Source of the DNA: Mesorhabditis belari
Lineage: Eukaryota; Nematoda; Chromadorea; Rhabditida; Rhabditidae
Reading direction: 5' to 3'
DNA: 64,000 nucleotides
NCBI GenBank assembly: GCA_958450365.1
Contig: CAUEEP010000601.1
Location: 86,666 to 150,665 of the forward strand
The notes under the pieces were generated by a model. That model had not been told where the DNA came from and made no database searches. It was given only the letters and a program-made list of their open reading frames with translations. Position numbers and translations under genes: made by a program. Shown here in pieces: positions 14,885-33,512 of this stretch. Numbering within the stretch: the first letter of the stretch is position 1; each line of letters opens with the position of its first letter.

Positions 14885-16210
14885 ATGCCAACGCTCTCGA
14901 TTGAAGGTGAACTTATTTAATGTTTTGATATTGACAATGTTTTTTGTTTAGATGAAGCTCTCCGTGTTGGTATCAACTATCATATGTGTCGCCTCAAAAA
15001 CAAGCCCTTTGATCCAAATCCAGAAGCCATTGCCGCTGGTATGATTGTCCAGCCACGCGAGCTCTTTTTCGATGTGAATACAATTGAAAAAGGTAAGATC
15101 TCAATTTTTAAAGTACGGGTTTTCGGACATGACCACGTGGTAACGATAAAGTATTTGTCATTTTAGCTGCTGTGTCGAAGAAGTTGGTTCAAGACATTCG
15201 CGCAAAGCATCAACCAAATAATATGATCATCTATGTAAGGACATTGACGGGAAAGAGAATCGGACTCGAGCTAAATGGTGATTACACTGTCGAAGAGCTG
15301 AAGATGCTTATTCAAGACAAAGAAGGAATTCCTCCCGATCAACAACGTCTCATTTTTGCTGGACAGCAATTGGAGAATGGAAGGACTTTGAGTGAATACA
15401 GCGTCAAAAATAAATCTACTATTCATTTGGTGCTGAAACTTCGAGGAGGAGGATGTACCGCTTATCAAATGCACAAGGAATGCTTTGCCGAGAAGTTCAA
15501 TTACGATTTCACGAAGATTTTGATCGATCAGCAACCATTCTCTCGTGGTGGAGCTCTCTACACTCGTCCACTTGGATCAAGGCGTTATGCTCTCGCTGTT
15601 CTTGACAAATATGGAGACAATGTTTGGCTTGGAAGTCTTCGCCGGTAATTTTTCTCCCGTTTTATTTTGTTAACTACAGGTTTAGCCAAAGTGCGAACAG
15701 CTCTATTGATGGCGAATGGCCAGTTGCTTATCATGGAACAACCGATCCGCGTGCTGCTGAAATTGTTCGTAGTGGTGGACTTGATTTGGTTTGTTATTTT
15801 GGCTTTTGAATAAATAGTGGGTAATCGGGGATCCTTTTTACAAAATATTCTTCTAGGAGAAAGGAAAGCGCTTTGCTTTTGGTCATGGCATTTACTGCAC
15901 TCCTGATCCAAAGACTGCACTCGCTTATGCATCGACTTACAAACACGATGGAAAAACCTACAAGTTGATTGTTCAGGTGAGATTTGTTACATACTTCTTA
16001 GTCGTACACATCCACATACAAACGATAAATAACAACTCAAAATTATTTCTTGGAAATACTTTATTAGTTTTGTTTCAGGCTCGTGTCGATCCATCTCGTC
16101 GTGAAATTGTGCCCAAGTCGAAACACGGTCGTGCCAATCTTGATGACTACTGGATTGCCAAGGAGAATGACGCCATTCGTCCATACGGAATTTGTGTCTT
16201 TCCTTGCTAG
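14885..16210 (+). CDS. Ubiquitin-ART fusion protein, copy A (333 aa)
   Basis: Six exons, all in phase: 14885-14906, 14952-15092, 15167-15644, 15680-15788, 15857-15976, 16079-16210. Residues 1-73 are an N-terminal region of unknown role (PRELFFDV). Residues 74-149 are a 76-residue ubiquitin-like module ending LKLRGG, with Leu8, Ile44 and Val70 kept but R6, L29, Q48 and N63 in place of the usual lysines; K11, K27 and K33 remain. Residues 150-214 ([17 protein letters not shown]) and 215-333 form a domain with WPVAYHGT (His232) and FGHGIYC (Tyr263), the order expected of the first two motifs of ART/PARP folds. I see no clear catalytic Glu. ART activity is inference. The start follows an orphan TTTCAG at about 14849, fitting trans-splicing. 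A poly(A) signal AATAAA lies at about 16448. Confidence 0.85.
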
Positions 16211-16660
16211 ACTTGCACGTTGATTATTTTTCATCTGTTAAGTTTCACTTTGTTATTCTCTTTTCCGTGTACATACTTATCATTGAATTGCACACTGGTT
16301 CTCTCTCATTTGTTAAGTTTCATTTTGTTATTCTCTTCTGCATGTACATACTTATAACCCTTTTTACTTTTTACTTACTTTTTACTGTTATCGGATTCTT
16401 TATTCTCATCTTGCACATATATAACGTTTTATCGCTGTTACATCCGTAAATAAAGTCTTTTAAAAGTTAGTGATTGCACTAGTTAAAAGTTTGACTGTGA
16501 ACGAGCTTTATCTTGACCAATTGGTCCGACATTTCATGAAACTTGAAGTAAATTTATACTACGACAATCGAAATGGGTATTTGTGTTGAAATCTTTGTTA
16601 AAAACGTTGCTTACTATTAGCTTGAATTTGCAGTGACCAATTTCCACTTTCTTTTTACAG
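16211..16660. other. 3' UTR of copy A and intergenic DNA
   Basis: Contains two imperfect copies of a TTAAGTTTCACTTTGTTATT stretch (16238 and 16312) and an AATAAA near 16448, which probably ends the copy A transcript. No further gene seen. Confidence 0.6.
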
Positions 16661-17356
16661 TTTTTCAAATTGCGGATAAAAAGAAAAACTCAAGCTTTAT
16701 AAGCGTTTTTCATTTTTTCATTGACACCGTTTCATTGTCCATCGCCAATTCTTCCAAAGGCAGAAGTTGTCTCAAAGCGACCAAAGTCACCGCTCTATCG
16801 GCAAAGCTTGAGTGGAAAATTGAGCAGGTTTGTAAGCTTGATTTATTTTTGTATTTATATGCTAGCTGTGAATATAATCGTTTTCTTTAGTTTGAACGTC
16901 TCATGAAGCTCTCTAAGAACGGGCAGAATCTCATCTCGAAGCAATTTGGCTGTCCAGAAGCTACCGTTGTTTCTTGGGAACTGCACGTCTATCCAAATGG
17001 AAAACGCGATGAAGATGCAACTAACGTGTCATTCTTCTTGCGTCAAGTTGGCCTCGCGGTGAGGCTTTACACGGTTTAATGTCTAGATCACCTTAAGTAC
17101 TGACTAGAGTAGACTGTTTAGCGTGGTGAGGAGCCGATCATGACTGAATTTCAAATTTACGCAGTGAATAAAGAAAACCAACGTGTTAGTGTCTGCCGCG
17201 ACACGAAGGATTTCTCCAATCAACAAGGTCGTGGGAAGTTTCAGGTATCAAGTTGTTGCAAGTAATTGCTCATCTATTCACATTGAGATAATAGTAATTT
17301 TGGTTTGGATGTCTGTAAGCCAAATTAAGGTTTCGCGTGAAAAAATGAATAACGGT
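16661..17356 (+). pseudogene. MATH-domain protein gene fragment
   Basis: Exons 16661-16827, 16891-17058, 17122-17244 and the start of another at 17330 splice in one frame. They read ...EWKIEQFERLMKLSKN, WELHVYPNGKR, FFLRQVGLARGEEPIMTEF, VSVCRDTKDF and QQGRGKFQVSREKM, a typical nematode MATH (meprin/TRAF homology) domain. At about 17356 the exon runs straight into MITE sequence (GTCATTTTGTTACGC) and no BTB or other downstream domain follows. MATH proteins often pair with BTB as Cul3 ubiquitin-ligase adaptors, but nothing shows that here. The 5' end is also unclear. Confidence 0.7.
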
Positions 17357-17445
17357 GTCATTTTGTTACGCTTGTTGAGATCTACAAAATGGCGAGTTCA
17401 TCGCGAGTTGCGCAAAAAATTTGGCGCAAAGTAGCCTTCGAACAA
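17337..17445. mobile_element. Partial MITE interrupting the MATH gene and an ART fragment
   Basis: TTGTTGAGATCTACAAAATG and CGCGAGTTGCGCAAAAAATT belong to the family that is complete at 28571-28850. It lies between the broken MATH exon and a fragment of the short ART gene. Confidence 0.65.
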
Positions 17446-17600
17446 TCTCCGCAGCACGTGGATGTGTTGTCGCATGGTAAGCGACTAGCCAATCATTTGG
17501 GACAGAATTCTGGTCACTTAGGTAATTAAAATCAATATACATCTTAGATATTTCAGTGCATTTCCTTTCAGCTTAACCACTACAACTAGAGTCTTTTGTC
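17446..17600 (-). pseudogene. Remnant of a short ART-like gene (D-type)
   Basis: Reverse complement matches the first exon and upstream region of genes D (33109) and D' (23339), including the CAGAATTCTGTCCCAAATG stretch. It is cut off after the AACACATCCACGTGCTGCGG equivalent. It follows gene B on the same strand as D' follows C and D follows F, so a long-plus-short pair is the ancestral unit. Confidence 0.65.
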
Positions 17601-17730
17601 TAATAATATACTTTATCCGTCAAATAAAGTGATCCAATAAATGACACAGGAGAATAGTTGAAAGTTAAGCTTGCAAAATAACAATCTATGCAAAAATTGT
17701 GCATGTCACAGATCAAAAAGTAGTTTCTAC

Positions 17731-18811
17731 TTAGCACGGAAAGACACAAATTCCATATGGACGAATGGCATCATTTTCCTTGAGAATCCAGTAATCACCA
17801 AGGCCAGGCTCACCGTGTTGAGACTTGGGCACAATTTCACGACGAGATGGATCGACACGGAGCTGAAACAAAATGAATACTTCCAACAAATCAGTTACTT
17901 ATTGACTATATTAAAGTCCGTAACAAATCCCACCTGAACGATCAACTTGTAGCTTTTTCCATTGTGTTCGTAAGGAGATGCATAATAGAGTGCAGTCTTT
18001 GGATCAGGAGTGCAGTAGATACCCTGTCCAAACTTGAAACGCTCGCCTTTTTTCTGCAAATAATAAAATAAAAGCAAATGTATACTCCAAACCAAATCAA
18101 GTCCACCACTACGAACAATTTCAGCAGCCCGCGGATCCGTTGTTCCATGATAAGCAACTGGCCATTCGCCATCAATAGAGCCGTTCGCACTTTGGCTAAA
18201 CCAGTAGTTAATAAAATAAAACAAGAAAAATTACCGCCCAACGTATCCGAGCCAGGCATTGTCCCCATATTTGTCCAGAACATCGAGAGCATAACGCACT
18301 GACCCCAGTGGGCGAATGTATTGAGATCCACCCCGAGAGAATGGTTGCTGATCGGTCAAAATATTCGTGAAATCGTAATTGAACTTTTCGGCAAAGCCTC
18401 CTGGGTGCATTTTGTAAACGCTGCATCTTCCTTGCCGACGTCCCAGCATCAAACGACGAGCAGCACCACGAAAGCGAGCTTTCGTACCTTAAGGATAAAA
18501 AGTAAACACTTTGAAAGAAAATTGGCTGGAAATTGAACTTACCCTTTTCAACCGTTTTCTGAATCGTATTCACATTGAAAAAGAGGTCGCGTGGTTCGAC
18601 AATCTTTTCAGAATCTGAGTCAGAATCAGAATCAGAACCCGAGCACGAATACAAAGCCGGATCGGAACCGAGATCTCCCATTGTAAAAGTCCCATTGTTG
18701 AGATGATGCATGTGACAGTTGATGCCAGCAAGGAGAGCTTGGTCTAAACAAAGAAATTTAGTCAATAGCAAAACATGAAATAAGTTTACCATTGATAGAA
18801 AGGGACGACAT
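17731..18811 (-). CDS. ART-like protein without ubiquitin, copy B (276 aa)
   Basis: Exons 18790-18811, 18543-18743, 18235-18487, 18093-18195, 17934-18053, 17731-17862 sum to 831 nt, in phase. The N-terminus matches copies A and C (PRDLFFNVNTIQK). In place of the ubiquitin module there is an acidic run GSDSDSDSDSDSE before it and a basic stretch after it (KARFRGAARRLMLGRRQGR). The later parts keep [25 protein letters not shown] and [11 protein letters not shown]. The exon 4 acceptor used in A and C (CTACAG) is CTACTG here; an AG six bases further on keeps the frame and removes only Phe-Ser. Start chosen after an orphan TTTCAG, as in A. Likely a functional paralogue; activity unknown. Confidence 0.8.
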
Positions 18812-18859
18812 ATTGAAACCAGTCACCGATTCCGAGAAGGTAGATCACTGAAAGAAAAT

Positions 18860-19314
18860 TACCGTAATAATTCTAATAGAAGACCATGGTCTTCTAATTT
18901 TCAACCCCCCCAAAATTGGTGAGTCAAAAAAGTAGGTAAAGGTCCCCCACATGAATCAAAAAATTAAAAATAGTTAAAAACTATTTCAAACGATAGCCCT
19001 TGCCCCAAAACATGCCAAAAACATGTCTAAAAGTGAAATTATTTTCTTGCCCGGACTCCATAGAAAATCTTTCAAAAAAATCCATGTAGGGGACCACATG
19101 AAATTTTTCCAAAAAGTTATTTTTTAATTTTTTTCAAAAACTACGTCTCCAATTTTACTGCCGGGGCTAAAATATTACTATCTGGACCCAAATCTTTCAT
19201 TCTACTTGAACAGAAGTTTTAAAAGGTCCCGATTTCAAGGGGTCAAGGGGGTGGTCTTCTATTGGAGACTGGTCTTCTATTAGAGACTGGTCTTCTATTA
19301 GAATTATTACGGTA
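18860..19314. mobile_element. MITE with TACCGTAATAATTCTAATAG ends
   Basis: Left end ACCGTAATAATTCTAATAGA is mirrored at the right (TCTATTAGAATTATTACGGT). The right arm also repeats GGTCTTCTATTAGAGACT in tandem. It lies 48 bp upstream of the gene B start. No transposase. Confidence 0.85.
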
Positions 19315-19694
19315 GTTGAAATTTCTGTTCGATAGCATTCAAAGCATAAAAAAAGAAGTCTGCTAACAATTCAAAGGGTATATCAAGGATAATTTTAAAA
19401 CTACTTTTCTCACACCAACTAAAAACTTTCTCAAACACTTATTTAGATTGCCACCTCCGTAAATTCCAATTACCTAAAGATTAATCGAACAATCATTAAA
19501 CCATGAAACAACTGATATTGGATACGCTCCTCGATTTCGTGAAGTGGAGCCAACGAATAAGAAAGAAATTATGCGAGTTGTAGTAGACCACAAATCGAGA
19601 AACGAAAGTTAAAAAATACGATTCAAACGTCATCTAGGAGCTATTCATAACCTGCCTATAACTGGGCTTCTAACTGTCCAAAGTGCACTAGAAC

Positions 19695-21050
19695 TATTTT
19701 AAAAAGCCAAGATTAACCCACTTAGAAGAAAGTTATGGCGAGTTGGGCAAAAAAATTTGGCGCAAAGAAGCGACCCCTATGGCAAGCCAAAAATGCTAAT
19801 GCAACACATAAATTTGAAAACATTGCTGCTTTTGGAATTTGGAGAATGAAATAACAAAGATTTCCCTTCGGACGAAAATTTCCTGTACAACTCAAAATAT
19901 TCAATTGAACAATTGCTTCCCGATAAAAAGTTGACCAAATTTATACTTGCAAAATCAACTGAATATTCGAAAAAGCTGTCTATTTAAAAAGCCACGTTCT
20001 GGAAAACTTTCAAATTTCTTTTTTGTAGATTTCACGGTGCAATATGTAGGTTTCTAACTGTTAAAACTTATTCAAATCTTTATTTTCTTTGAAATGTCGT
20101 CTTGGGTCGTCAAACGTCGAGCAAAAAGAACTAGAAAAATTGGGGAGGTAGTCAAATGAGCGTCAATCATTTTAGCGCGCGTTCATTTCAGCGCCGAATC
20201 AACCCATTCTGTATATGCATGTTATTTTTGCATTTTCTGCATGATCTCAAAGTTTTTACTGTATGTTTTTATCTAAATCATCTGAAGATAAAAATAATTC
20301 TTGGCAGCAAAATAAACCAAAATAAATCATGAACAAAACGTTACTTTGACTCCGAGTGTTCCTTTGTCTCGCCACTTCTTGCGCAGTTCACGAGCCTAAG
20401 CAAAGAACTATGTTAACTGTAAGCAAATTGTAAACGAAAACGGCAAGAAACGGTGAAAAAGCATGCTATTGGGGGAAAATATCATACAACTAGCAAATTT
20501 ACACATTTTCATCAAAAAAACCTTAAATACGAGCTAATCTAACAATTTTTTCCGCGCATTTGGTGCCTACTGCCGTGCCCTAGGTCAAATGAGTGAAAAA
20601 AGTGTAAAAACAGAAGCAAAACCCTAAAAAAACATGCAAAAGCAGCGTAGAAAGCAAAAATATTAAAATTTAGTCGCGCTGAAATGAACGTTTTCCAGTC
20701 ATTTTTGGCCCGGCGCTTAAATGAACGTTTTTAGGCCTTTTTAATTTGGCGCTCAAATGATTGTTTTCCAGTCATTTTTGGCACGGCGCTCAAATGAGTG
20801 GCGCTGAAATAAGCGTGAGCCAAATCGTTGGCGCTGAAATGATTGGCGCCCAATTGTTGGCGCTCATTTGACTACCTCCCAAAGATTGAAGGTGAACCCG
20901 AAGTTATTGACAGACGCAATTATCCAAAAAGGACTAGCAGAATTCAAGACCATATTAAAAACTTACCTGGTGAAAGTGAAAGTGTCACGGTGAAAGTGTT
21001 AGAATTCTCCGGCCATTCAGAAGTCTAACAATGGTCTCTCAAAACATTTT
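19695..21050. mobile_element. Inverted copy of the 13.9-14.5 kb repeat, split by another element
   Basis: 19735-20141 and 20881-21050 together are the reverse complement of about 13929-14500. A second element (20142-20880) has inserted in the middle. 19316-19694 holds AT-rich DNA with fragments that also flank the DPAGT1 3' ends. Confidence 0.75.
20142..20880. mobile_element. hAT-like non-autonomous element (about 740 bp)
   Basis: Ends are inverted: GGGAGGTAGTCAAATGAGCG at the left, CGCTCATTTGACTACCTCCC at the right. Both sides are rich in GGCGCTGAAATGA-type repeats. Flanks AAAAATTG and AAAGATTG look like an 8-bp target duplication with one change. The same repeat at about 14085-14105 lacks the insertion. 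Eight-base duplications are typical of hAT elements. No transposase seen. Confidence 0.8.
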
Positions 21051-21305
21051 TTCGACATCAAAAACTTCTTTGGTGGCATTCACCTACTCGAGAGTTCAGG
21101 GAGTTTTTCTTGTCTAAATGTGCAAAAATGCCAAGTAATTTAATGAATCTAGGATTTTTTGATGTGCTCTTTTTAATAAAAAAGAATTCAAACAGTAGCA
21201 TGCTGCTAATTTAATATTGGATATTGCGATATTGCGATTTTCTTGGGTGAATTTATTGATGTGAAACGCGGTGTACTTTTGTGTTATAGATAAGGGAAGT
21301 ATAAG

Positions 21306-22267
21306 TTATTTTGTCATACCCCGTTCTGTTTCTTGTGTCTGGGCTGTATGGAGGAGCTGAGATAAGTTGAACACGATTTGCTTTGAATCATCCTGGAAGA
21401 CGAGCTTTTCCACCATTTGCGAGACTGACGAGACCCGGCCCATTAGCAATTGGCTCTTGTGGCAAGGCGCATTATCCTGATAAAGCAGCCATCCAGGACC
21501 CATTTTTGCAATTGAAAATGGCAGAAGATGATTCTGGAGAAGTGATTTGCAGCCTTCAGCATTGAGCGTTGAGTTTAGTAGCACTAGCGGACCTGGTGAA
21601 TTTCTCGACATTGCACCTGAAAAACAGTTGAGAGTGTGCACCATGAAAGTAGCCCTTACCCCAAAGCATGATTGATCCTTGGCCAAATTTCACGGTTGGT
21701 CGCACATATCTGATGTTGTACCGCTTTCCTATTGGTCTTCTGATGTTGTACCGCTTTCCTATTGGTCTTCTGATCAAGTGGTTGCCATCCGGGAGAAAAA
21801 GATTGACTTTTGACTCATCAGTAAAAATCACATTTGCCCAATCATTTGTCGTCCAGGAAGCATACTTCTTTGCAAACTCCAAGCGAATCTTCCGATGCTT
21901 GGCATCGGCAGGGCTTCTTGGCTGCGCTTCTCGTCACCAACCCACCACGAATCAAGCGTCGGCTCACTGTCATTCGTGATACATCCTTGCCGAATTGACT
22001 TTTCATCATGACGACTCCATCGCTCGCATTGAGATCCTTGTTATTTTTGTGAGCTTTGACGAGCGCTTTATCCTCTCTGGGTGTTGTAATTGGTGGACGG
22101 CCTGATTTTGAAGCTCGGTGAACAGATCCAGTCGTTTTGAACGTCCCGACAATTACAGATACCGTTTTTTCACTGCATTTGAAGAGAGCTGCCACATCTT
22201 TCCTCTGAATTCCTCTATCTCGCGCTTCCACATTTTTTTCTTTGTCCCGAGTCCAGTGTCCAGGCAT
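21306..22267 (-). pseudogene. Tc1/mariner transposase, degenerate
   Basis: The N-terminal part (22267 down to 21842) begins MPGHWTRDKEK and has paired HTH-like segments (RKDVAALFKCSEKTVSVIVG, GRPPITTPREDKALVK). The next frame holds the catalytic-type FTDESKV and GSIMLWG, and a third frame LLYQDNAPCHKS. Two frameshifts break it, and the region after QDNAPCH does not give a convincing third acidic residue. RRPIGKRYNI is duplicated by a 30-bp tandem repeat at about 21718-21780. The upstream end (22560-22700) matches fragments at 10.57 and 33.67 kb. The other terminal repeat was not found. Confidence 0.85.
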
Positions 22268-22935
22268 CTAAAAAAATAATTTTTTGTTATATAAAAAGAA
22301 AATAAAAACAAAAACAAACAAAAAAAGCAAAATACTTCAAATGTTACAAGACTTTTGAGCATCAAAAATAGGCCCGTTTTTTGTTTTTACTTGTTTTTCC
22401 TAATTTTTGTTAATCGTTTCAATAAAGTTTTTCTTACATATAAAAATAGAAATTTTTGACAACTGAAAACCAAAAACTGTTTGAGAATTCGCCTCTTTGC
22501 AAAAAGTTATTACACTTTGAAATTTGCTAAACTGGATGTTACAAAACTTTTGTGCATGACTGTAGTTTCTTCCATGTAAAAACACAACCCATGCAAAATT
22601 TCTGGTCATTTCGCTCATCCAAAGTACTTTATCGTACAAAAAACGTTTTATCAGCTGTCAAAAAATTATAGACGCACTTTTCTTTTATAAAGAAAAAGTT
22701 AACAGAAATAAAAATAACAACGAAAATAACACCTAAATACTTTTTCGTTCATAATTATCCAGCCACATTCATCAAGCACCCCAATGTGTACTTCTTTAAC
22801 GCAATGGATTTATCTAGTGAATGTAACTGAAATGACGAAGGTATTTATGTGCAAAATGGAAGTCATCATAACAAATTTGTAAAGTTATAACAAATTGGGC
22901 TGTATGTGCAAAGCGAAAAAACAAATTACAAGTTA

Positions 22936-23339
22936 TCAAAGGAGAACACAAATTCCATAAGCACGATTGGCATCATTCTCTTTGGCGATCCAGTAGTCAT
23001 CAAGATCGGCAACGCTGTGTTTCGACTTGGGCACAATTTCACGACGAGCTGGATCAATCCCAATCAACTTGTAGGTTCTTCCATCGTAGTGATAAGTCGA
23101 TGCGTAAGCAAGAGTAGTCTTTGGACCAGGAGAGCAGTAGATGCCGTAAGCATAAGCAAAGCGTACCCTTTTTGCCTAAAAGAAATACAAGTTAGATAAA
23201 CTCCAATATGAAAAACCAAAACAAGTCCACCACTTCGAACAATTCCTACAGCACGTGGATCTGTTGTCCCACGGTAAGCGACTAGCCATTCATTTGGGGC
23301 AAAATTCTGGCCACTTAGGTAATTAATATCAATATACAT
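22936..23339 (-). CDS. Short ART-like protein D' (120 aa)
   Basis: Two exons, 23217-23339 and 22936-23175, 363 nt in phase, starting MYIDINYLSG. It covers only the C-terminal ART-like domain of the long copies. The first motif reads VAYRGTTDPRA, so the His of YHGT is Arg. The second is AYGIYCSPGP, lacking G-x-G. The intron that splits this region in the long genes before RVDP is absent and the QARV residues are missing. The open frame with lost motif residues may mean recent decay or a non-catalytic role. It follows copy C by 190 bp on the same strand. Confidence 0.55.
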
Positions 23340-23529
23340 CTTAGATATTTCAGTGGATTTCCTTTCAGCTTAACCACTACAATTAGCGCCTTTTGTATAA
23401 TAATATATAGTTTATCCACCAAATAAAGTGATCCAATGAATGGCATATTAGAATAGTTGAAAGTTAAGCTTGCAAAATATCAACGTATGCAAAAATTGTG
23501 CATCTCACAGATCAAAAAGTAGTTTCTAA

Positions 23530-24856
23530 TTAACACGGAAAGACACAAATTCCGTATGGACGAATGGCGTCATTTTCCTTGGCAATCCAGTAGTCATCAA
23601 GGCCAGGAACACAGTGTTTCGATTTGGGCACAATTTCACGACGAGATGGATCGACACGAGCCTGAAACAAAACTAATAAAGTATTTCCAAGAAATAATTT
23701 TGAGTTGTTATTTATCGTTTGTATGTGGATGTGTACGACTAAGAAGTATGTAACAAATACCACCTGAACAATCAACTTGTAGGTTTTTCCATCGTGTTTG
23801 TAAGTCGATGCATAAGCGAGTGCAGTCTTTGGATCAGGAGTGCAGTAAATGCCATGACCAAAAGCAAAGCGCTTTCCTTTCTCCTAGAAGAATATTTTGT
23901 AAAAAGGATCCCCGATTACCCACTATTTATTCAAAAGCCAAAATAACAAACCAAATCAAGTCCACCACTACGAACAATTTCAGCAGCACGCGGATCCGTT
24001 GTTCCATGATAAGCCACTGGCCATTCGCCATCAATAGAGCTGTTCGCACCTTGGCTAAACCTGTAGTTAACAAAATAAAACAGGAGAAAAATTACCGGCG
24101 AAGAGTTCCAAACCAAACATTGTCTCCATATTTGTCAAGAACAGCGAGAGCATAACGCTTTGATCCAAGTGGACGAGTGTAGAGAGCTCCACCACGAGAG
24201 AATGATTGCTGATCGATCAAAATATTCGTGAAATCGTAATTGAACTTCTCGGCAAAGCATTCCTTGTGCATTTGATAAGCGATACATCCTCCTCCTCGAA
24301 GTCTCAGCATCAAATGAATAGTATATTCATTTTGGATATTGTATTCACTCAAAGTCCTTCCATCCTCCAATTGACCTGTAGCAAAAATGAGACGTTGTTG
24401 ATCGGGAGGAATTCCTTCTTTGTCTTGAATAAGCATCTTCAGCTCTTCGACAGTGTAATCCCGATTTATCATGAGACTGATTGTCTTTCCCGTCAATGTC
24501 TTTACAAAGATATTCATATTATTTGGTTGATGCTTTGCGCGAATCTCTTGGACCGACATCTTCGACACAGCAGCTAAAATGAAAAATACTTTATCGTTAC
24601 CACGTGGTCATGTCCGAAAACCCGTACTTTAAAAATTGAGATCTTACCTTTTTCAACTGTACTCACATCGAAAAAGAGCTCGCGCGGTTCGACAATCATA
24701 CCAGCGGCAATGGCTTCTGGATTTGGATCAAAGGGCTTGTTTTTGAGGCGACACATATGATAGTTGATACCAACACGGAGAGCTTCATCTAAACAAGAAA
24801 AATTTGCCAATATTAAAACATCAAATAAGTTCACCTTCAATCGAGAGCATTGGCAT
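23530..24856 (-). CDS. Ubiquitin-ART fusion protein, copy C (333 aa)
   Basis: Exons 24835-24856, 24648-24788, 24096-24573, 23952-24060, 23764-23883, 23530-23661; 1002 nt, exactly the lengths of copy A. Its ubiquitin module is closest to ordinary ubiquitin at the start ([12 protein letters not shown]6 and K11 kept) but has T47-G48 instead of G47-K48, L29, N63 and M70, and ends LRLRGG. Motifs [25 protein letters not shown] and [10 protein letters not shown] are intact. The start follows an orphan TTTCAG with a leader similar to copy A. This copy lies in the left arm of the large inverted repeat, just downstream of the complete DPAGT1. Confidence 0.85.
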
Positions 24857-24899
24857 ATTGAAAACAGCTACTGATTTCAAGGAGGTGGATCACTGAAAG

Positions 24900-25632
24900 G
24901 AAAACAGTTGAAATTTCTGTCTGGTGGCCATCAATACATCAAATAACAAGCTGCTAATAACTTAAAAACGAAAATTAAGAAAGCAATTGTACGAATACCT
25001 ATTTAAAACACCTAAAAACCCAAAAGTGCACTAGAACTATTTTAAAAAGCCAAGATTAACCCACTTAGAAGAAAGTTATGGCGAGTTGGGCCAAAAAGTT
25101 TGGCGCAAAGTAGTCACCCCGTGAAATTGTCTAAGCAAGCTAAAAACGCTAGTGCAACACATAAATTTGGAAACATTGCTTCGGTATTTGGAGAATGAAA
25201 TGACAAACGATTCCCCTTCCGACGAAAATTTCCTGTACAACTCAAAATATTCAATTGAACAATTACTTCCCGGTAAAAAGTTGACCGGAAAACGAAAATT
25301 AGGAAAGCAATTGTACGAATACCTTTTTACAACACCCAAAAACTCTTTCAACCACTTATTTGGGTTACCACCTCCGTAAATTCAAAATATTGGGATTAAA
25401 ACCCTCCATCAAGATCATTAAGAACACTTCACCCGAATCAAATAAAATATCGTGTAAACTCCAACAATAACAATAAAAGAACATATTATGCAACATTATG
25501 ATCGACAATCACGATAATCTAAAACACTAATAAAATAAACAAAAGAGATTACCATAAAATCACATATAAACTTTAAAAAAATGTTCGATTAAACTAAAAT
25601 TCCTAGAAACAGCAGAATCTCATCCAAATTTC
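24900..25632. other. Spacer between DPAGT1 copy 2 and copy C
   Basis: About 25050-25120 is a partial MITE (CTTAGAAGAAAGTTATGGCG). 25130-25400 resembles part of the 14.3-14.5 kb repeat. 25380-25600 is AT-rich and duplicated in reverse at 31150-31400. Small ORFs here are repeat-derived; no gene seen. Confidence 0.6.
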
Positions 25633-28377
25633 TTACAAAACAACATCGTACAGTATTCGAGCCAAAAAGAAGCGAATTATGAAAGCGAGAATCGACGAGA
25701 ATACTTGTAACAACAGCAGCAATTTGGTGAGAGTGCCTGAAATCATGGAAATCACTTTTATTCGCTTTGTCTATTAACTTTCCGTCAACAAAACTCACCC
25801 TCGCGCACTGGTCCAACAAACTTCAGCACCAAGTTGATCACCGTGAAGTTGTTGAGCCGAATCCATCTAAAAAAAAGAGTCGTTGAGCTTTACTATATAT
25901 TACTATAAAGGCTTATTCCTTACTTTTCTCCATCGTTGTTGAAATCTTCCTTGAATAGAAGGCCAATCGTCGACAAAATCGTCACTACCCATTGCCCGAA
26001 TCGGTCTAGTTCGGATTTCTAGAAATCAAATGAAATAAAATCAAATGTATTCATTCGAAAACCCACCTTAAATTCGGCAAAACTCATCCCGACTGTGTCT
26101 GTCTTAGAATCGAATTTGGGTAATCGATGTCTCGGGCAAGGTACAAGATGGAAAAGTTGAGGAGTCGAATATATAAAATTGAATGCCTTAAATGATATTA
26201 TCGTTGTAATAAAAGCTTTTAACTAACCTGTGGAATAAAGAAAAGCATCGCCGTTTTTGAGAAATGTCCGAGAATTGCCACTACAGCCAACGTCATGCCC
26301 GCCCAATAACAGTACGTGTCACCAACGAAAACGCGAGCCGGATACTAAAAGTCAATAAATGAAGGTAAACCTGATAAAATTAGCTACCTTATTGAAGTTA
26401 TAGAGGATCAACGATGTTGTGATGAATGGTAACAAAAAGTAGATTGACAACCAATTGTACCAACATTCGATCGGATCTTGAAGGCGATATAGCTAAATAA
26501 GTGATTGTAAATTATTGAAACACACCAACAAACCTGTATGACATTGTATAAAGTGATCGATGAAGCAATGACGAGACTTTGACCGACCTAAATGAAAATG
26601 AGCTCTTTCCACTTAATCGTTTAACCTCCAATCCGTTGATTCCCGCGTAAATATTGATCGAATTTGTGCAGAAGACAATCACCATTCCCATGAAAACGTA
26701 GTAGAGCAAATTGATGTCAAGGGAAGTTGTCATCTAAACCAAAATATTGTTGACCATAAAAAGTTAAAACTTTACCTCAAATCCAAGAAATGAAACAATG
26801 GAACGAGCAATCTTCGGCACAACAATCGTCGTCGAGCTGCCTGAATTAAAACTAAAAGATCATTTTGAATGAATCAAATCACCTTGTACATAGTAGACCA
26901 TCAAAACCGGTAATGATGAAAGCGTTGGGAAAAGCAACTTGTGACGCCATCTAAAGAACATCTAAAGAATAACGGTATTCAAAAAAAGCTACCGTTAGCA
27001 TTTACAAGCTCATCAATCAGTAAACTTTAATCGGTTTACATATCTGACAATCTAATTTGCATTTCACACCAACGCTCTCCATAAAAATCATTTCACTAAC
27101 TACTTTTGCCGAATTTGTTTCCTAACACACGATTCCTACAAAGGTTGGTTTTTTTTCTTATTTGAAAACTTTTTACTTGCTTAGCTTAGTTTTAATTGTT
27201 TTGTTTATTGTTTATAAGATTAGTCTTTATTGTTTCATTGGATGTTTAGCATTTTAAATACTAGTTTCTTTGAACTTTGCCAAATCTTTCCTTTTTAGCA
27301 GTCGCAACATGGTTAATGTGGATGATCTTTGTGTACGTGGCCGCAATCTCTCATTCAATCATCAAATGTGGTGGCGATAAGGGCAAGAAGGATCCACTAC
27401 CCAACAAATCACAGTCACCACCGGTAATTGATTCAATTTTACTTTGAAATCTATGAAGCAGTATGCCGATGGGTAACTGACCCAAAAAATCAAAAAATGC
27501 ATTGCCTGTAACTTGTTTTTATTTTAGCCAGCAGCAAAGGAAAAACCAGCGGCATCAAAACCGGAAGGAGGCGCCGAAGGAGCAGGGTCGGTTAATTTAA
27601 TGCTTAAACTTGTAACTCTAGTAACGTTGATTGTCTTTTTCATTCAACAATTCTTCATTTTAGATACGGGTAATGTCCAGACATGACACCCGAAGAATTG
27701 GCAAAGATTGCCAATCAAAAATAGACGAACGAGTGGATGAGATGTCGCCAAGAAATAAATTCCTATCTCTTTGTCACCACTCACTTTTTTTATCAATGAA
27801 TAAAGGGGTTGATTTGAGTGAAAATTTGAGGAATCTTGTTTTACAACTTCTAAACTAACCTCAAATCAAGCATATCATCGGCGAAACCCAATAAAATTGC
27901 TGTGCAAATCGAGATGATCGCCGAGAGGAAGGCCAAGAATTTGTCGTGCGGGAATAAACGCCTAAAAATTCAATTTATATAGTTTTATACAATTTTTCCA
28001 TTAAGAATATCATAAAAACTGACTCTGTGTATGTCCATTCGAGAAAGGGAAATGGTATGAAGATGAACATGATAATAAGATAAACGGCTGCAGTGATGAC
28101 ACCCATCGGCTCGGGAATTGGAGCGTTGCTCACCTAAAAATAATAAAGATACAGGTTAACATTAAAACAAAACTAATTGACCTATTTCACTATTGCCATT
28201 GCTTATGACCTATTGCTTTCTTCTTAATAAACCAAAACTGATCCAAACCTTGCATTGATCGTTTCCATAGTGCCCACGTTGAATGAAGATTGGAATGTAT
28301 TCTTGTATCAGCTTCAACGAGACGAAACCACCCAAAAGGCTCAGCAAACAGTTCGTTGTAATCGTGAAAAGGCTCAT
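25633..28377 (-). CDS. DPAGT1: DPAGT1 / ALG7, UDP-GlcNAc:dolichyl-phosphate GlcNAc-1-phosphotransferase (414 aa), complete copy
   Basis: Catalyses the first step of N-glycan assembly at the ER membrane, making GlcNAc-PP-dolichol. Thirteen exons, 1245 nt in phase: 28249-28377, 28024-28133, 27860-27961, 26883-26950, 26776-26840, 26626-26733, 26534-26587, 26388-26492, 26228-26344, 26067-26186, 25924-26018, 25799-25866, 25633-25736. Features: multiple hydrophobic segments, [13 protein letters not shown] (about 106-118), [16 protein letters not shown] (about 179-194), [15 protein letters not shown] with Asp256, [11 protein letters not shown], and the family's C-terminal [14 protein letters not shown]. 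Length matches human DPAGT1 (about 408 aa). Intron 3 is unusually long (27859-26951) and holds a small gene relic on the opposite strand. The two other DPAGT1 copies in the window are broken, so this is probably the working gene. Confidence 0.95.
27303..27721 (+). pseudogene. Small membrane-type gene nested in DPAGT1 intron 3, probably inactive here
   Basis: Exon 1 (about 27309-27423) reads [15 protein letters not shown] then [15 protein letters not shown], a single hydrophobic segment followed by a basic tail. Exon 2 (about 27529-27588) reads [20 protein letters not shown]. The last exon should give [19 protein letters not shown] as at 13.3 kb, but here TACGGGTAA puts a stop after two codons. 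The start is preceded by TTTTAGCAGTCGCAAC, a possible trans-splice acceptor. Unrecognised family. Confidence 0.5.
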
Positions 28378-28570
28378 TCTAAATGGAAAACATCATGGAA
28401 AACATCATGGAAAACATCACGAGAAGCTTGAAGTTGACAAATGAAACTAGAGCAAAAAGATGAAATAATATGAATAGTAACCTTTCGTAAGTTTGGAAAA
28501 ATGAAGTTATCTTTGTCTTGCTCATTTGTGTAAGAAATTAGCGAAGTCAAATATAATGTGCACCTTTCAG

Positions 28571-28850
28571 GGGATAGGCTAATTTCCGCAATTTTTTGCG
28601 CAATAGGGTCGTTTGCGACTACTTTGCGCCAAATTTTTGGGATCATTTGCGCAACTTGTCACAACTTTCTTCTAAGTCGGCCAATCTTTATGATTTTGGT
28701 TGGCTTCATTTTGTTGCACTTATTGAGATCTACAAAATGAAACCTACAAAATCTACAGAATCGGAAAAATTGGTCGACTTAGAAGAAAGTTATGGCGAGT
28801 TGCGCAACCGACCCTGTTGCGCAAAAAATTGCAGAAATTAGCCTACCCCC
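28571..28850. mobile_element. Complete MITE, TAGGCTAATTTCCGCAA family
   Basis: Left end GGGATAGGCTAATTTCCGCA and right end GCAGAAATTAGCCTACCCCC are inverted. The two arms share GCGCAATAGGGTCG, CATAACTTTCTTCTAAGT-type and GTTGCACTTATTGAGATCTA-type segments. It is 195 bp upstream of the DPAGT1 start. In copy 1 the matching flank at about 12480-12500 (GGGATAAATTAGCCTATCCC) looks like a footprint or short remnant of the same site. Confidence 0.85.
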
Positions 28851-29175
28851 TTTTCAGAGGTATAGGGTACGTTATATATGTTACATCCGTTATGGAATCG
28901 TTTATTTGATTCGGTTAAAGTGTTCTTAATGATCTTGATGGAGGGTTTTAATCCCAATATTTTGAATATTGAGATTAAACGGAGGTGGCAACCCAAATAA
29001 GTTGTTGAAAAAGTTTTTGAGTGTTGTAAAAAGGTATTCGTACAATTGCTTTCTTAATCTTCCTTTTTAAATTATTAGCAGCTTGTTATTTGATGTATTG
29101 ATGGCCACCAGACAGAAATTTCAACTGTTTTCCTTTCAGTGATCCACCTTCTCGAAATCGGTAGCTGTTTTCAAT

Positions 29176-29607
29176 ATGCCAACGCTCTCGATTGATGGTG
29201 AACTTATTTAATGCTTTGATATTGACAAATTTTTTTGTTTAGATGAAGCTCTCCGTGTTGGTATCAACTATCATATGTGTCGCCTCAAAAACAAGCCCTT
29301 TGATCCAAATCCAGAAGCCATTGCCGCTGGTATGATTGTCGAACCGCGCGAGCTCTTTTTCGATGTGAGTACAGTTGAAAAAGGTAAGATCTCAATTTCT
29401 AAGGTACTGGTTTTCGGGCATCACCACGTGGTAACGATAAAGTATTTTTTATTTTAGCTGCTGTGTCGAAGAAGTTGGTTCAATACATTCGCGCAAAGCA
29501 TCAACCAAATAATATGATCATCTATGTAAGGACATTGACGGGAAAGAGAATCGGACTCGAGCTAAATGGTGATTACACTGTCGAAGAGCTGAAGATGCTT
29601 ATTCAAG
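29176..29607 (+). pseudogene. Ubiquitin-ART copy E, truncated inside the ubiquitin module
   Basis: Exons 29176-29197, 29243-29383 and 29458 onward match copies A and C ([29 protein letters not shown]) until residue 31 of the ubiquitin module (LKMLIQ). At 29607/29608 the sequence jumps to the reverse complement of DPAGT1 intron 3 DNA (from 27285). No downstream part remains. Confidence 0.85.
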
Positions 29608-29939
29608 CAAAGTTCAAAGAAACTAGTAGTATTTAAAATGCTAAACATCCAATGAAACAATAAAGACTAATCTTATAAACAATAAACAAAACAATTAAAA
29701 CTAAGCTAAGCAAGTAAAAAGTTTTCAAATAAGAAAAAAAACCAACCTTTGTAGGAATCGTGTGTTAGGAAACAAACTCTACAAAAGTAGTTAATGAAAT
29801 GATTTTTATGGAGAGCGTTGGTGTGAAATGCAAATTAGGTTGTCAGATATGTAAACCGATTAAAGTTTACTGATTGATGAGCTTGTAAATGCTAACGGTA
29901 GCTTTTTTTGAATACCGTTATTCTTTAGATGTTCTTTAG

Positions 29940-31143
29940 ATGGCGTCACAAGTTGCTTTTCCCAACGCTTTCATCATTACCGGTTTTGATGGTCTACTAT
30001 GTACAAGGTGATTTGATTCATTCAAAATGATCTTTTAGTTTTAATTCAGGCAGCTCGACGACGATTGTTGTGCCGAAGATTGCTCGTTCCATTGTTTCAT
30101 TTCTTGGATTTGAGGTAAAGTTTTAACTTTGTATGATCAGCAATATTTTGTTTAGATAACAACTTCCCTTGACATCAATTTGCTCTACTACGTTTTCATG
30201 GGAATGGTGATTGTCTTCTGCACAAATTCGATCAATATTTACGCGGGAATCAACGGATTGGAGGTTAAGCGATTACGTGCAAAGAGCTCATTTTCATTTA
30301 GGTCGGTCAAAGTCTCGTCATTGCTTCATCGATCACTTTATACAATGTCATACAGGTGTTTGTTGGTGTGTTTAAATAATTTACAATCACTTATTTAGCT
30401 ATATCGCCTCCAAGATCCGATCGAATGTTGGTACAATTGGTTGTCAATTTACTTTTTGTTACCATTCATCACAACATCGTTGATCCTCTATAACTTCAAT
30501 AAGGTAGGTAATTTTATCAGGTTTACCTTTATTTATTGACTTTTAGTATCCGGCTCGCGTTTTCGTTGGTGACACGTACTGTTATTGGGCGGGCATGACG
30601 TTGGCTGTAGTGGCAATTCTCGGACATTTCTCAAAAACGGCGATGCTTTTCTTTATTCCACAGGTTAGTTAAAAGCTTTTATTACAACGATAATATCATT
30701 TAAGGCATTCAATTTTATCTATTTGACTCCTCAACTTTTCCATCTTGTACCTTGCCCGAGACATCGATTACCCAAATTCGATTCTAAGACAGACACAGTC
30801 GGGATGAGTTTTGCCGAATTTAAGGTGGGTTTTCGAATAAACACATTTGATTTTATTTCATTTGATTTCTAGAAATCCGAACTAAACCGATTCGGGCGAT
30901 GGGTAGTGACGATTTTGTCGACGATTGGCCTTCTATTCAAGGAAGATTTCAACAACGATGGAGAAAAGTAAGGAATAAGCCTTTATAGTAATATATAGTA
31001 AAGCTCAACGACTTTTATATAGTAAAGTAATATATAGTAAAGCTCAACGAATTGCTGCTGTTGTTACAAGTATTCTCGTCGATTCTCGCTTTCATAATTC
31101 GCTTCTTTTTGGCTCGAATACTGTACGATGTTGTTTTGTAAGT
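29940..31143 (+). pseudogene. DPAGT1: DPAGT1 copy 3, lacking exons 1-3 and 12
   Basis: Exons 4-11 are present and match copy 2: 29940-30007, 30050-30114, 30156-30263, 30302-30355, 30399-30503, 30547-30663, 30705-30824, 30873-30967. After exon 11 a short duplication of TATAGTAATATATAGTAAAG has replaced exon 12, and exon 13 begins only at AATTGCTGCTGTTG (about 31050). No start exon exists, because the copy begins inside intron 3 at 29608. Confidence 0.9.
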
Positions 31144-31594
31144 AATTTGGATGAGATTTCTGTTGTTTCTAGGAATTTTAGTTTAATCGAACATTTTTTA
31201 AAAGTTGATATGTGATTTTATGGTAATCTCTTTTAGTTATTTTATTAGTGTTTTAGATTATCGTGATTGTCGATCATAATGTTGCATAATATGTTCTTTT
31301 ATTGTTATTGTTGGAGTTTACGCGATATTTTATTTGATTAGGTTAAAGTGTTCTTAATGACCTTGATGGAGGGTTCTAATCCCAATATTTTGAATTTACG
31401 GAGATGGCAACCCAAATAAGTGGTTAAAAAAGTTTTTGGGTGTGGTAAAAAGGTATTCGTACAATTGCTTTCTTAATTTTTCTTTTTAAGGTATTATCAG
31501 CTTGTTATTTGTTGCATTGATAGCCATCAGACAGAAATTTCAACTCTTTTCTTTTCAGTGATCCACCTTCTCGAAATCAGTAGCTGTTTTCAAT

Positions 31595-32917
31595 ATGCCA
31601 ACGCTCTCGATTGAAGGTGAACTTATTTAATGTTTTGATATTGGCAATTTTTTTTGTTTAGATGAAGCTCTCCGCGTTGGTATCAACTATCATATGTGTC
31701 GCCTCAAAAACAAGCGCTTTAATCCAGATCCAGAAGCCATTGCCGCTGGTATGATTGTCCAGCCACGCGAGCTCTTTTTCGATGTGAATACAATTGAAAA
31801 AGGTAAGATCTCAATTTTTAAAGTACTGGTTTTTGGGCACCACCGCGTGGTAACGATAAAGTATTTTTTATTTTAGCTGTTGTGTCGAAGAAGTCGGTCC
31901 AAGAGATTCGCGCGAAGCATCAACCAAATAATATGACTATCTTTGTAGCGGTATTGGTAGGAAAGAAAATCATACTCGAGCTAAATGGTGATTACACTGT
32001 CGAAGAGCTGCGTACGCTTATTCAAGACAAGGAAGGAATTCCTTCCGATCAACAGCGTTTCATTTTTGCTGGACAGCAATTGGAGAATGGAAGGACTTTG
32101 AGTGAATACAATGTCAAAAATCAATCTACTATTCATTTGATGCTGAGACTTCGAGGAGGAGGAGGATGTATCGCTTATCAAATGCACAAGAAATGCTTTG
32201 CTGAGAAGTTCAATTACGATTTCACGAAGATTTTGGTCGATCAGCAATTATTCTCTCGTGGTGGAGCTCTCTACACTCGTCCACTTGGATCAAAGCGTTA
32301 TGCTCTCGCTGTTCTTGACAAATATGGGGACAATGTTTGGCTTGGAACTCTTCACCGGTAATTTGTCTCCTGTTTTATTTTGTTAACTACAGGTTTAGCC
32401 AAAGTGCGAACAGCTCTATTGATGGCGAATGGCCAGTTGCTTATCATGGAACAACGGATCCGCGTGCTGCTGAGATTGTTCGTAGTGGTGGACTTGATTT
32501 GGTTTGTTATTTTTGCTTTTGTATAAATAGTGGGTAATCGTGGATCCTTTTTACAAAATATTCTTCTAGGAGAAAGGAAAGCGCTTTGCTTTTGGTCATG
32601 GCATTTACTGCACACCAGACCCAAAGACTGCACTCGCTTATGCATCGACTTACCGAGGGAAAAACCTACAAGTTGATTGTTCAGGTGGGATTTGTTACAT
32701 ACTTCTTAGTCGTACACATACACATACCAACGATAAATAACAACTCAAAATTATTTCTTGGAAATACTTTATTAGTTTGTTTCAGGCTCGTTTCGATCCA
32801 TCTCGTCGTAAAATTGTGCCCAAATCGAAACACGGTGTTGCCGATCTTGATGACTACTGGATTGCCAAGGAGAATGACGCCATTCGTCCGTACGGAATTT
32901 GTGTCTTTCCGTGTTAA
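31595..32917 (+). pseudogene. Ubiquitin-ART copy F, frameshifted in exon 5
   Basis: Exons 31595-31616, 31662-31802, 31877-32357, 32393-32501, 32570 onward and 32786-32917 correspond to copy A. The ubiquitin module is the most altered (A6, V7, V9, I14, R27, S38, F43, Q48, N63, M70) but still ends LRLRGG, with one extra Gly after it. In exon 5, TAC is followed by CGAGGGAAAAACC where A has 18 bases, a net loss of five, so the frame stops early in exon 6 (SFRSISS, stop). A shortened protein retaining YHGT and GIYC remains possible. Confidence 0.8.
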
Positions 32918-33108
32918 CTAGAAACTACTTTTTGATCTGTGACATTGCACAATTTTTGCATACGTTGATATTTTGCAAGCTTAGCTTTCAACTAGTCTAA
33001 TGTGCCATTCATTGGATCACTTTATTTGATGGATAAAGTATATATTATTATACCGAAGGCGCTAATTTTAGTGGTTAATCTGAAAGGAAATCCACTGAAA
33101 TATCTAAG

Positions 33109-33512
33109 ATGTATATTGATTTTAATTACCTAAGTGACCAGAATTCTGCCCCAAATGAATGGCTAGCCGCTTACCATGGAACAACAGATCCACGTGCTGC
33201 TGAAATTGTTCGAAGTGGTGGACTTGATTTGGTTTGTCACATTTCAGTTTATCTAACTTGTATTTCTTTTAGGCAAAAGGGGTACGCTTTGCTTATGCTT
33301 ACGGCATCTACTGCTCTGCTGATCCAAAGACTACTCTTGCTTGCGCATCGACTTATCACTACGATGGAAGAACCTACAAGTTGATTGGGATCGATCCAGC
33401 TCGTCGTGAAATTGTGCCCAAGTCGAAACACGGCGCTGCCGATCTTGATGACTACTGGATCGCCAAAGAGAATGATGCCATTCATGCTTATGGAATTTGT
33501 GTTTTCCTTTGA
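33109..33512 (+). CDS. Short ART-like protein D (120 aa)
   Basis: Exons 33109-33231 and 33273-33512, 363 nt in phase, starting MYIDFNYLSDQN. It keeps [20 protein letters not shown] but has AYAYGIYCSADP instead of the G-x-G-I-Y form, then [19 protein letters not shown] and a C-terminus GICVFL. It lies 191 bp after copy F in the same arrangement as D' after C. Expression and function are unknown. Confidence 0.55.

What the first reader, a model, noticed from the sequence alone, without database searches (positions are those of the whole stretch)
14885..33512. Local family of ubiquitin modules fused to an ART/PARP-like domain
Copies A, C and F encode an N-terminal region, a 76-residue ubiquitin ending LRGG, a conserved middle segment (FSRGG, LDKYGD) and a C-terminal domain with YHGT and GIYC motifs in ART order. 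Known systems link ADP-ribosylation and ubiquitin through separate proteins (PARP9/DTX3L) or bacterial effectors (SidE family); a host gene family carrying ubiquitin and an ART-like domain in one chain would be a self-contained link. The Ub could be a cis substrate, a recruiting module, or be cut off after LRGG. Catalysis is inference: I see no clear catalytic Glu.
Basis: partly seen in the sequence, partly recalled or inferred. Interest (0 to 1): 0.88.

Follow-up and report, generated by a model that had tools for sequence, protein, structure and literature searches.

The report
Ubiquitin fused to PARP-like enzyme domain
A nematode carries a cluster of genes that join an altered ubiquitin to a PARP-like ADP-ribosyltransferase domain in one protein; the same design occurs in many other eukaryotes, and here the ubiquitin half changes faster than the enzyme half, which hints at a role in conflict or defence.

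Summary
The window is from the nematode Mesorhabditis belari. Copy A (14885-16210) is an open six-exon gene of 333 residues: N-terminal segment, 76-residue ubiquitin ending LRGG, PARP-like ART domain. Ubiquitin and the start of the ART share one exon. Copy C is also intact. Copy F has a 5-base deletion in an ART exon. Copy B lacks ubiquitin.

The design is not private to this worm: Ub-ART chains occur in other nematodes, Hydra, a rotifer, fungi, Dictyostelium and Balamuthia. My searches found no paper on the family, though one reports ubiquitin-related domains in Acanthamoeba PARPs.

The eight worm ubiquitins keep RGG (8 of 8) but K48 in none and K63 in one. Omega is about 2.1 for ubiquitin (p 0.008; five intact copies 1.85, p 0.077) against 0.3 for the ART.

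Best reading: a PARP-fold transferase with a ubiquitin-shaped bait for ubiquitin-handling proteins. Activity, cleavage and targets are unproven.

The parts
14885..16210 (+). Copy A, Ub-ART gene, 333 aa; exons 14885-14906, 14952-15092, 15167-15644, 15680-15788, 15857-15976, 16079-16210 (stop included)
   Evidence: all introns GT-AG, open frame
15223..15450 (+). ubiquitin domain of copy A (residues 74-149, ends LRGG, next residue G)
15451..16207 (+).
   Evidence: PF00644 E 3.8e-4, 20.5 bits, below cut-off; fold shown on copy B model
17734..18811 (-). Copy B, ART gene without ubiquitin (public protein P0004, 276 aa); stop codon just below 17734
23530..24856 (-). Copy C, intact Ub-ART gene, 333 aa
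24290..24517 (-). ubiquitin domain of copy C
29176..29612 (+). Copy D, truncated: N-terminal exons and about 31 residues of ubiquitin
31595..32917 (+). Copy F, Ub-ART gene with a 5-base deletion in the GIYC exon
31933..32160 (+). ubiquitin domain of copy F
33079..33512 (+). extra C-terminal ART exons downstream of copy F; no ubiquitin found with them
22936..23369 (-). extra C-terminal ART exons downstream of copy C

Best explanation
These are genes of an old eukaryotic family in which a ubiquitin-fold domain stands directly before a PARP-fold ADP-ribosyltransferase domain. Shown: the architecture, the open frames, the ubiquitin match, the predicted PARP fold (copy B), the wide spread, conserved His and Tyr of the triad, and uneven evolution of the two halves in this worm. 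Inferred: the ART binds NAD+ and acts as a mono-ADP-ribosyltransferase. The ubiquitin module keeps most of the residues and the tail by which ubiquitin is grasped but is rarely equipped for chains at K48 or K63, so it works as a tethered bait or address. It brings the ART to ubiquitin-handling proteins, of the host or of invaders, which the ART then marks. The ubiquitin of this worm's copies diversifies because the partner changes. Cutting after LRGG by a deubiquitinase, which would free the ART, is a possible switch and is not shown.
Against: The residue at the catalytic Glu position is not invariant (E 41, D 22, K 7, A 4, N 3, others 7 of 84) and is D in this worm. Copies A and B score below the Pfam PARP cut-off of 26.7 (20.5; 16.5), and three Ub-bearing relatives (Hydra P0095 and P0105, and P0103) show no PARP match at E <= 0.01. 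Omega above 1 is not significant with the five fully intact copies (1.85, p 0.077), and gene conversion among copies was not modelled. The N-terminal segment is also fast (omega 1.3, p 0.37). Over all 300 non-Mesorhabditis pairs ubiquitin and ART are equally alike (0.49 and 0.49; ubiquitin lower in 162). Many members, among them the fish proteins seen and copy B, lack ubiquitin, so the ART can do without it. No expression, activity or partner data.
Confidence: 0.42

Rival explanations
1. Ubiquitin-fusion precursor: the ubiquitin helps folding and is cut off after LRGG by deubiquitinases, freeing the ART, as in ubiquitin-ribosomal protein fusions.
For: RGG followed by Gly in the 8 worm copies; GG strongly kept in relatives; the ubiquitin domain of a relative superposes on deubiquitinase-bound ubiquitin (1xd3).
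Against: Ubiquitin is only 63-75% identical to canonical ubiquitin in the 6 worm copies measured, with K48 gone; several relatives have tails such as FGGG, LSGG or FRYG; one worm copy has PRGG.
Confidence: 0.22
2. Self-contained ubiquitin modifier: the ART ADP-ribosylates its own ubiquitin or free ubiquitin, in function like SidE (R42) or CteC (T66).
For: R42 kept in 30 of 35 and T66 in 29 of 35 relatives outside Mesorhabditis, and each in 7 of 8 worm copies; known targets from PMC11668277 section 5.
Against: R42 and T66 also belong to ordinary ubiquitin, so this is not specific; many members have no ubiquitin; no catalytic Glu in this worm.
Confidence: 0.13
3. Pseudo-enzyme: the ART is an inactive scaffold, like PARP13 (inactive by recall), and ubiquitin is a docking domain.
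Against: His, Tyr and the IRPYG strand are near invariant and the ART is under purifying selection (omega 0.3, p 1e-6); E or D in 63 of 84.
Confidence: 0.18
4. The ubiquitin stretch in this worm is a decaying remnant or is spliced out; only the ART matters.
For: Four public gene models (P0001, P0002, P0007, P0010) remove ubiquitin as a GT-AG intron of 276-346 bases, two of them with the same acceptor motif; omega is not below 1; one copy lacks a ubiquitin codon.
Against: The four predicted introns have four different donors inside one open exon. Ubiquitin is free of stops in all 8 copies; neutral simulation, substitutions only, gives on average 4.0 copies with a stop and none in 1.9% of 5000 runs. 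Drift predicts omega 1, not 2. RGG kept in 8 of 8, LRGG in 7 of 8.
Confidence: 0.1

Closest known systems
PARP/ARTD enzymes (PARP16, PARP10, PARP4, PARP15; Pfam PF00644)
   Same: Fold over about 125-150 residues in the 50 entries listed; His and Tyr of the triad; HGT and GIY motifs
   Different: Sequence identity about 10-17% in those entries; Asp or variable residue at the Glu position; RP-G-R and IRPYG motifs of its own; ubiquitin in front
Ubiquitin-related domains with PARP in Acanthamoeba (Perina et al. 2014, PMC4245714; passages read)
   Same: Ubiquitin-related domain plus PARP in one protein
   Different: In the passages seen, one sentence on Clade 5 PARPs, without analysis of the ubiquitin; whether it is this family was not tested
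PARP with ubiquitin-conjugating domain in fungi (Citarelli et al. 2010, PMC2964712; passages read)
   Same: ART linked to the ubiquitin system in one chain
   Different: E2-like domain behind the PARP, not ubiquitin itself
SidE effectors, CteC and DTX3L/PARP9 (PMC11668277, abstract and section 5)
   Same: ADP-ribosylation meets ubiquitin
   Different: Ubiquitin is a separate substrate, not part of the enzyme; no sequence test made
Ubiquitin-eL40 and ubiquitin-eS31 fusions
   Same: Ubiquitin with LRGG in front of another protein
   Different: There ubiquitin is canonical (recalled); here 63-75% identical in the 6 worm copies measured

Membership tests
PARP/ARTD superfamily | PARP catalytic fold | tested here: met
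PARP/ARTD superfamily | Pfam PF00644 score over the curated cut-off of 26.7 | tested here: not met
   Copy A ART piece 20.5 bits, copy B 16.5. Among relatives P0012 30.8 and P0099 37.9, P0092 29.6, P0046 28.3 pass; P0120 26.4, P0100 23.1 and P0059 19.8 do not; P0095, P0105, P0103 had no match at E <= 0.01. I therefore call the window proteins PARP-fold, PARP-like
PARP/ARTD superfamily | His and Tyr of the NAD+ site | tested here: met
   His 81 of 84, Tyr 84 of 84; both line up with the worm's own PARP in a local profile alignment, probability 68%, E 4.8e-5
Active poly-ADP-ribosylating PARP | Catalytic Glu | tested here: inconclusive
   Asp in M. belari; E 41, D 22 of 84. The match of this position to PARP Glu rests on strand order; the profile alignment did not reach it
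PARP/ARTD superfamily | NAD+-dependent transfer | not testable with these tools
   needs protein
Ubiquitin family (PF00240) | Score over the cut-off | tested here: met
   92.5 bits against 25.4
Ubiquitin proper | Near identity to ubiquitin, with K48 and K63 | tested here: not met
   63-75% identity in 6 worm copies; K48 0 of 8, K63 1 of 8
Ubiquitin proper | C-terminal LRGG | tested here: met
   Met in 7 of 8 worm copies, among them A, C and F; R74, G75, G76 in 8 of 8, L73 in 7 of 8
tRNA 2'-phosphotransferase (TRPT1/KptA) | Closest fold | tested here: inconclusive
   Not among the 50 entries listed; weak sequence hints only: PTS_2-RNA in 3 of 40 members, best E 0.062, NCBIfam E 0.029 for P0012, one PDB chain E 0.35
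SidE effectors | mART plus phosphodiesterase acting on ubiquitin | not tested
   No phosphodiesterase domain among the Pfam families listed (25 of 31 shown); no direct comparison

The most novel reading that the evidence does not exclude
A eukaryote-wide class of ubiquitin-guided ADP-ribosyltransferases: the tethered ubiquitin is a diversifying bait for ubiquitin-attacking or ubiquitin-reading proteins of pathogens, and capture or cleavage after LRGG triggers the ART. Ubiquitin, normally almost frozen, would here be under positive selection as an immune sensor.
Probability: 0.2. Interest if true: 0.88.

Novelty: new variant of a known kind. Interest (0 to 1): 0.62.

Why it matters
Ubiquitin is among the most conserved proteins known, yet in this worm it is the fast half of a two-domain protein while the attached PARP-like domain is the conserved half. 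If the ubiquitin is a bait or a switch, this is a built-in link between two major protein-marking systems, found in animals, fungi and amoebae but, as far as my searches went, not described as a family. Dictyostelium and Hydra carry members, so it can be tested in laboratory organisms.

Tried and rejected
PDB by sequence with the copy A ART alone: no significant match; the profile did better. Viral contigs: no pattern match. Bacterial and archaeal genomes: 12 pattern matches, none confirmed. These two scans used one short motif each, so absence is weak. A first Ub-against-ART identity count cut two ART segments wrongly (P0046, P0038) and is replaced; only its identities to canonical ubiquitin are used. 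A motif tally read gapped rows and loose patterns and is not used; one search replaces it. Codon fits with a poor kappa range are replaced. Automatic alignment of the third motif to PARP failed. NCBIfam gave only sub-cut-off matches. TRPT1 was not among the listed fold matches. The rows shown by the full-length fold searches are all ubiquitin structures, so the arrangement of ubiquitin and ART was not tested. The most variable worm ubiquitin sites include 2, 4 and 12, which I recall as the Phe4 patch; this is post hoc and not used as evidence. Literature: the listings (17, 60 and 81 empty) showed no paper on this family by title or abstract start; PMC7955679 was looked at in passages and treats another ART-like family. 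The library lacks most subscription papers, and the 2015 ART review chapter by Aravind and colleagues was not available to me. Rows dropped: one search used 84 of 141 proteins; one search used 127 of 149 rows, leaving out nine worm rows (mis-annotated, truncated or damaged) and rows of unsuitable length; one search used 31 selected rows; one search used the 35 relatives with ubiquitin over 40 bits. The eight-copy codon tests keep F and two other damaged or odd copies; one search leaves them out.
Full report
Where it lies. The window is contig C446, bases 86666-150665, of a 207.6 Mb assembly. This nematode has a highly heterozygous genome (PMC10456839, passages), which fits the near-identical gene sets seen on C446, C451 and C561; part of the copy count is therefore probably two haplotypes of one locus.

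The genes. Copy A has six exons with GT-AG introns of 45, 74, 35, 68 and 102 bases and encodes 333 residues. Residues 74-149 are ubiquitin. The exon 15167-15644 carries ubiquitin and the first part of the ART together, so ubiquitin is not an optional exon of its own. Copy C has the same structure and is intact. Copy F has a 5-base deletion in the GIYC exon. Copy D breaks off within ubiquitin. Copy B has no ubiquitin. The genome search gave eight places with a match over the whole ubiquitin-plus-middle query, five on C446 and three on C561; in the stretches I fetched, spliced alignment found the ART behind all eight, not all undamaged, and twelve further ART genes without ubiquitin, several paired between contigs. 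More divergent ART pieces lie on C681 and C294, and one close piece on C242.

Public annotation. Four annotated proteins of this family (P0001, P0002, P0007, P0010) have the ubiquitin removed as a predicted GT-AG intron of 276, 285, 339 or 346 bases. The four donors differ, two share an acceptor motif, and all lie inside one open exon, so I take them for prediction artefacts, but RNA is needed. All eight copies keep the ubiquitin frame free of stops; one lacks a codon. Neutral simulation of substitutions on their tree gives on average 4.0 copies with a stop, and none in 1.9% of 5000 runs. In other organisms, ORFs whose names point to transcript assemblies (P0089, P0097) carry both domains.

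The ubiquitin domain. In eight worm copies R74, G75, G76, I36 and L71 are all kept and L73 in seven; K48 is Q or G in all; K63 is N in seven and K in one. In 35 relatives outside Mesorhabditis, G75 is kept in 31 of 33 and G76 in 30 of 30 where aligned, K27 in 34 of 34, R42 in 30 of 35 and T66 in 29 of 35, against K48 in 14 and K63 in 8 of 35; the mean over all positions is 61%. Some relatives have altered tails.

Uneven evolution. Pooled pairwise counts over the eight worm copies give pN/pS of 0.95 for the N-terminal segment, 1.36 for ubiquitin, 0.39 for the middle segment and 0.33 for the rest of the ART. Codon models give omega about 2.1 for ubiquitin (against 1: LR 7.0, p 0.008), 0.3 for the ART (p 1e-6), 0.4 for the middle (p 0.006) and 1.3 for the N-terminal segment (p 0.37). 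Dropping any one copy leaves ubiquitin at 1.94-2.60, p 0.003-0.024; six copies, F included, give 1.90, p 0.040. With the five fully intact copies omega is 1.85, p 0.077. So the contrast between the halves is firm, while positive selection on ubiquitin is likely but not proven; gene conversion was not modelled. Between species, ubiquitin is less alike than the ART in 15 of 15 close non-Mesorhabditis pairs (ART identity at least 0.60); over all 300 such pairs the two halves are equal, 0.49 each, with ubiquitin lower in 162.

Spread. Two protein searches gave 141 proteins. Ubiquitin with the ART occurs in records named Ditylenchus, Panagrolaimus, Aphelenchoides, Acrobeloides, Diploscapter, Hydra, Didymodactylos, Glomus, Funneliformis, Dictyostelium and Balamuthia. 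The fish members seen and some nematode members lack ubiquitin. Balamuthia adds a WWE domain, and several proteins without a source name have WWE plus ART. On a quick tree of 127 ART domains M. belari is one group (SH-aLRT 99) and its six ubiquitin-bearing rows are one group inside it (99); the ubiquitin label needs at least 19 changes, against 42.1 on average when shuffled. Gains and losses cannot be told apart without a root, and some rows without ubiquitin may be truncated gene models. No viral or prokaryotic relative was found in two motif-limited scans.

How it may work. A conserved PARP-fold domain joined to a changing ubiquitin look-alike whose tail is kept fits a bait or address module better than a ubiquitin supply or a chain unit. 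Which partner, whether the ART transfers ADP-ribose, and whether the chain is cut after LRGG are open. I put about 0.42 on the bait reading and list the rivals.

What is known. Links between PARPs and ubiquitin are established: fungal PARPs with an E2 domain (PMC2964712, passages), ubiquitin-related domains with Acanthamoeba PARPs (PMC4245714, passages), SidE, CteC and DTX proteins (PMC11668277, abstract and section 5). The searches named in Tried and rejected showed no paper on this family.

Noticed in passing
C446:16530-17812 (P0001), the gene at C446:22371 (P0007), C561:411966-413290 (P0010), C561:484595-485919 (P0002): Public gene models cut the ubiquitin out of four family members with four different predicted introns inside one open exon; database domain counts will miss these fusions.
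   Followed up: yes
22936-23369 (-), 33079-33512 (+); also 17366-17572 (-), where one search shows only the YHAT exon: A second, partial set of C-terminal ART exons follows family genes here and at several other places in the genome; function unknown.
   Followed up: partly
26512-26733 (-), 30156-30398 (+): Frames that resemble, by eye, the tail of public protein P0009, which is named as a UDP-GlcNAc dolichyl-phosphate transferase and starts as a family ART, lie between the copies; the duplicated unit may include pieces of that gene.
   Followed up: no
21306-22267 (-): Broken frames that look like a Tc1/mariner-type transposase by recall; no search made.
   Followed up: no
C446, C451, C561: Near-identical family genes on three contigs, for example C446:28176 and C561:398288, point to uncollapsed haplotypes.
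   Followed up: partly
protein P0046 (Balamuthia) and P0119, P0120, P0121, P0123, P0124, P0125, P0129, P0132: WWE domains occur with this ART type, once together with ubiquitin.
   Followed up: partly
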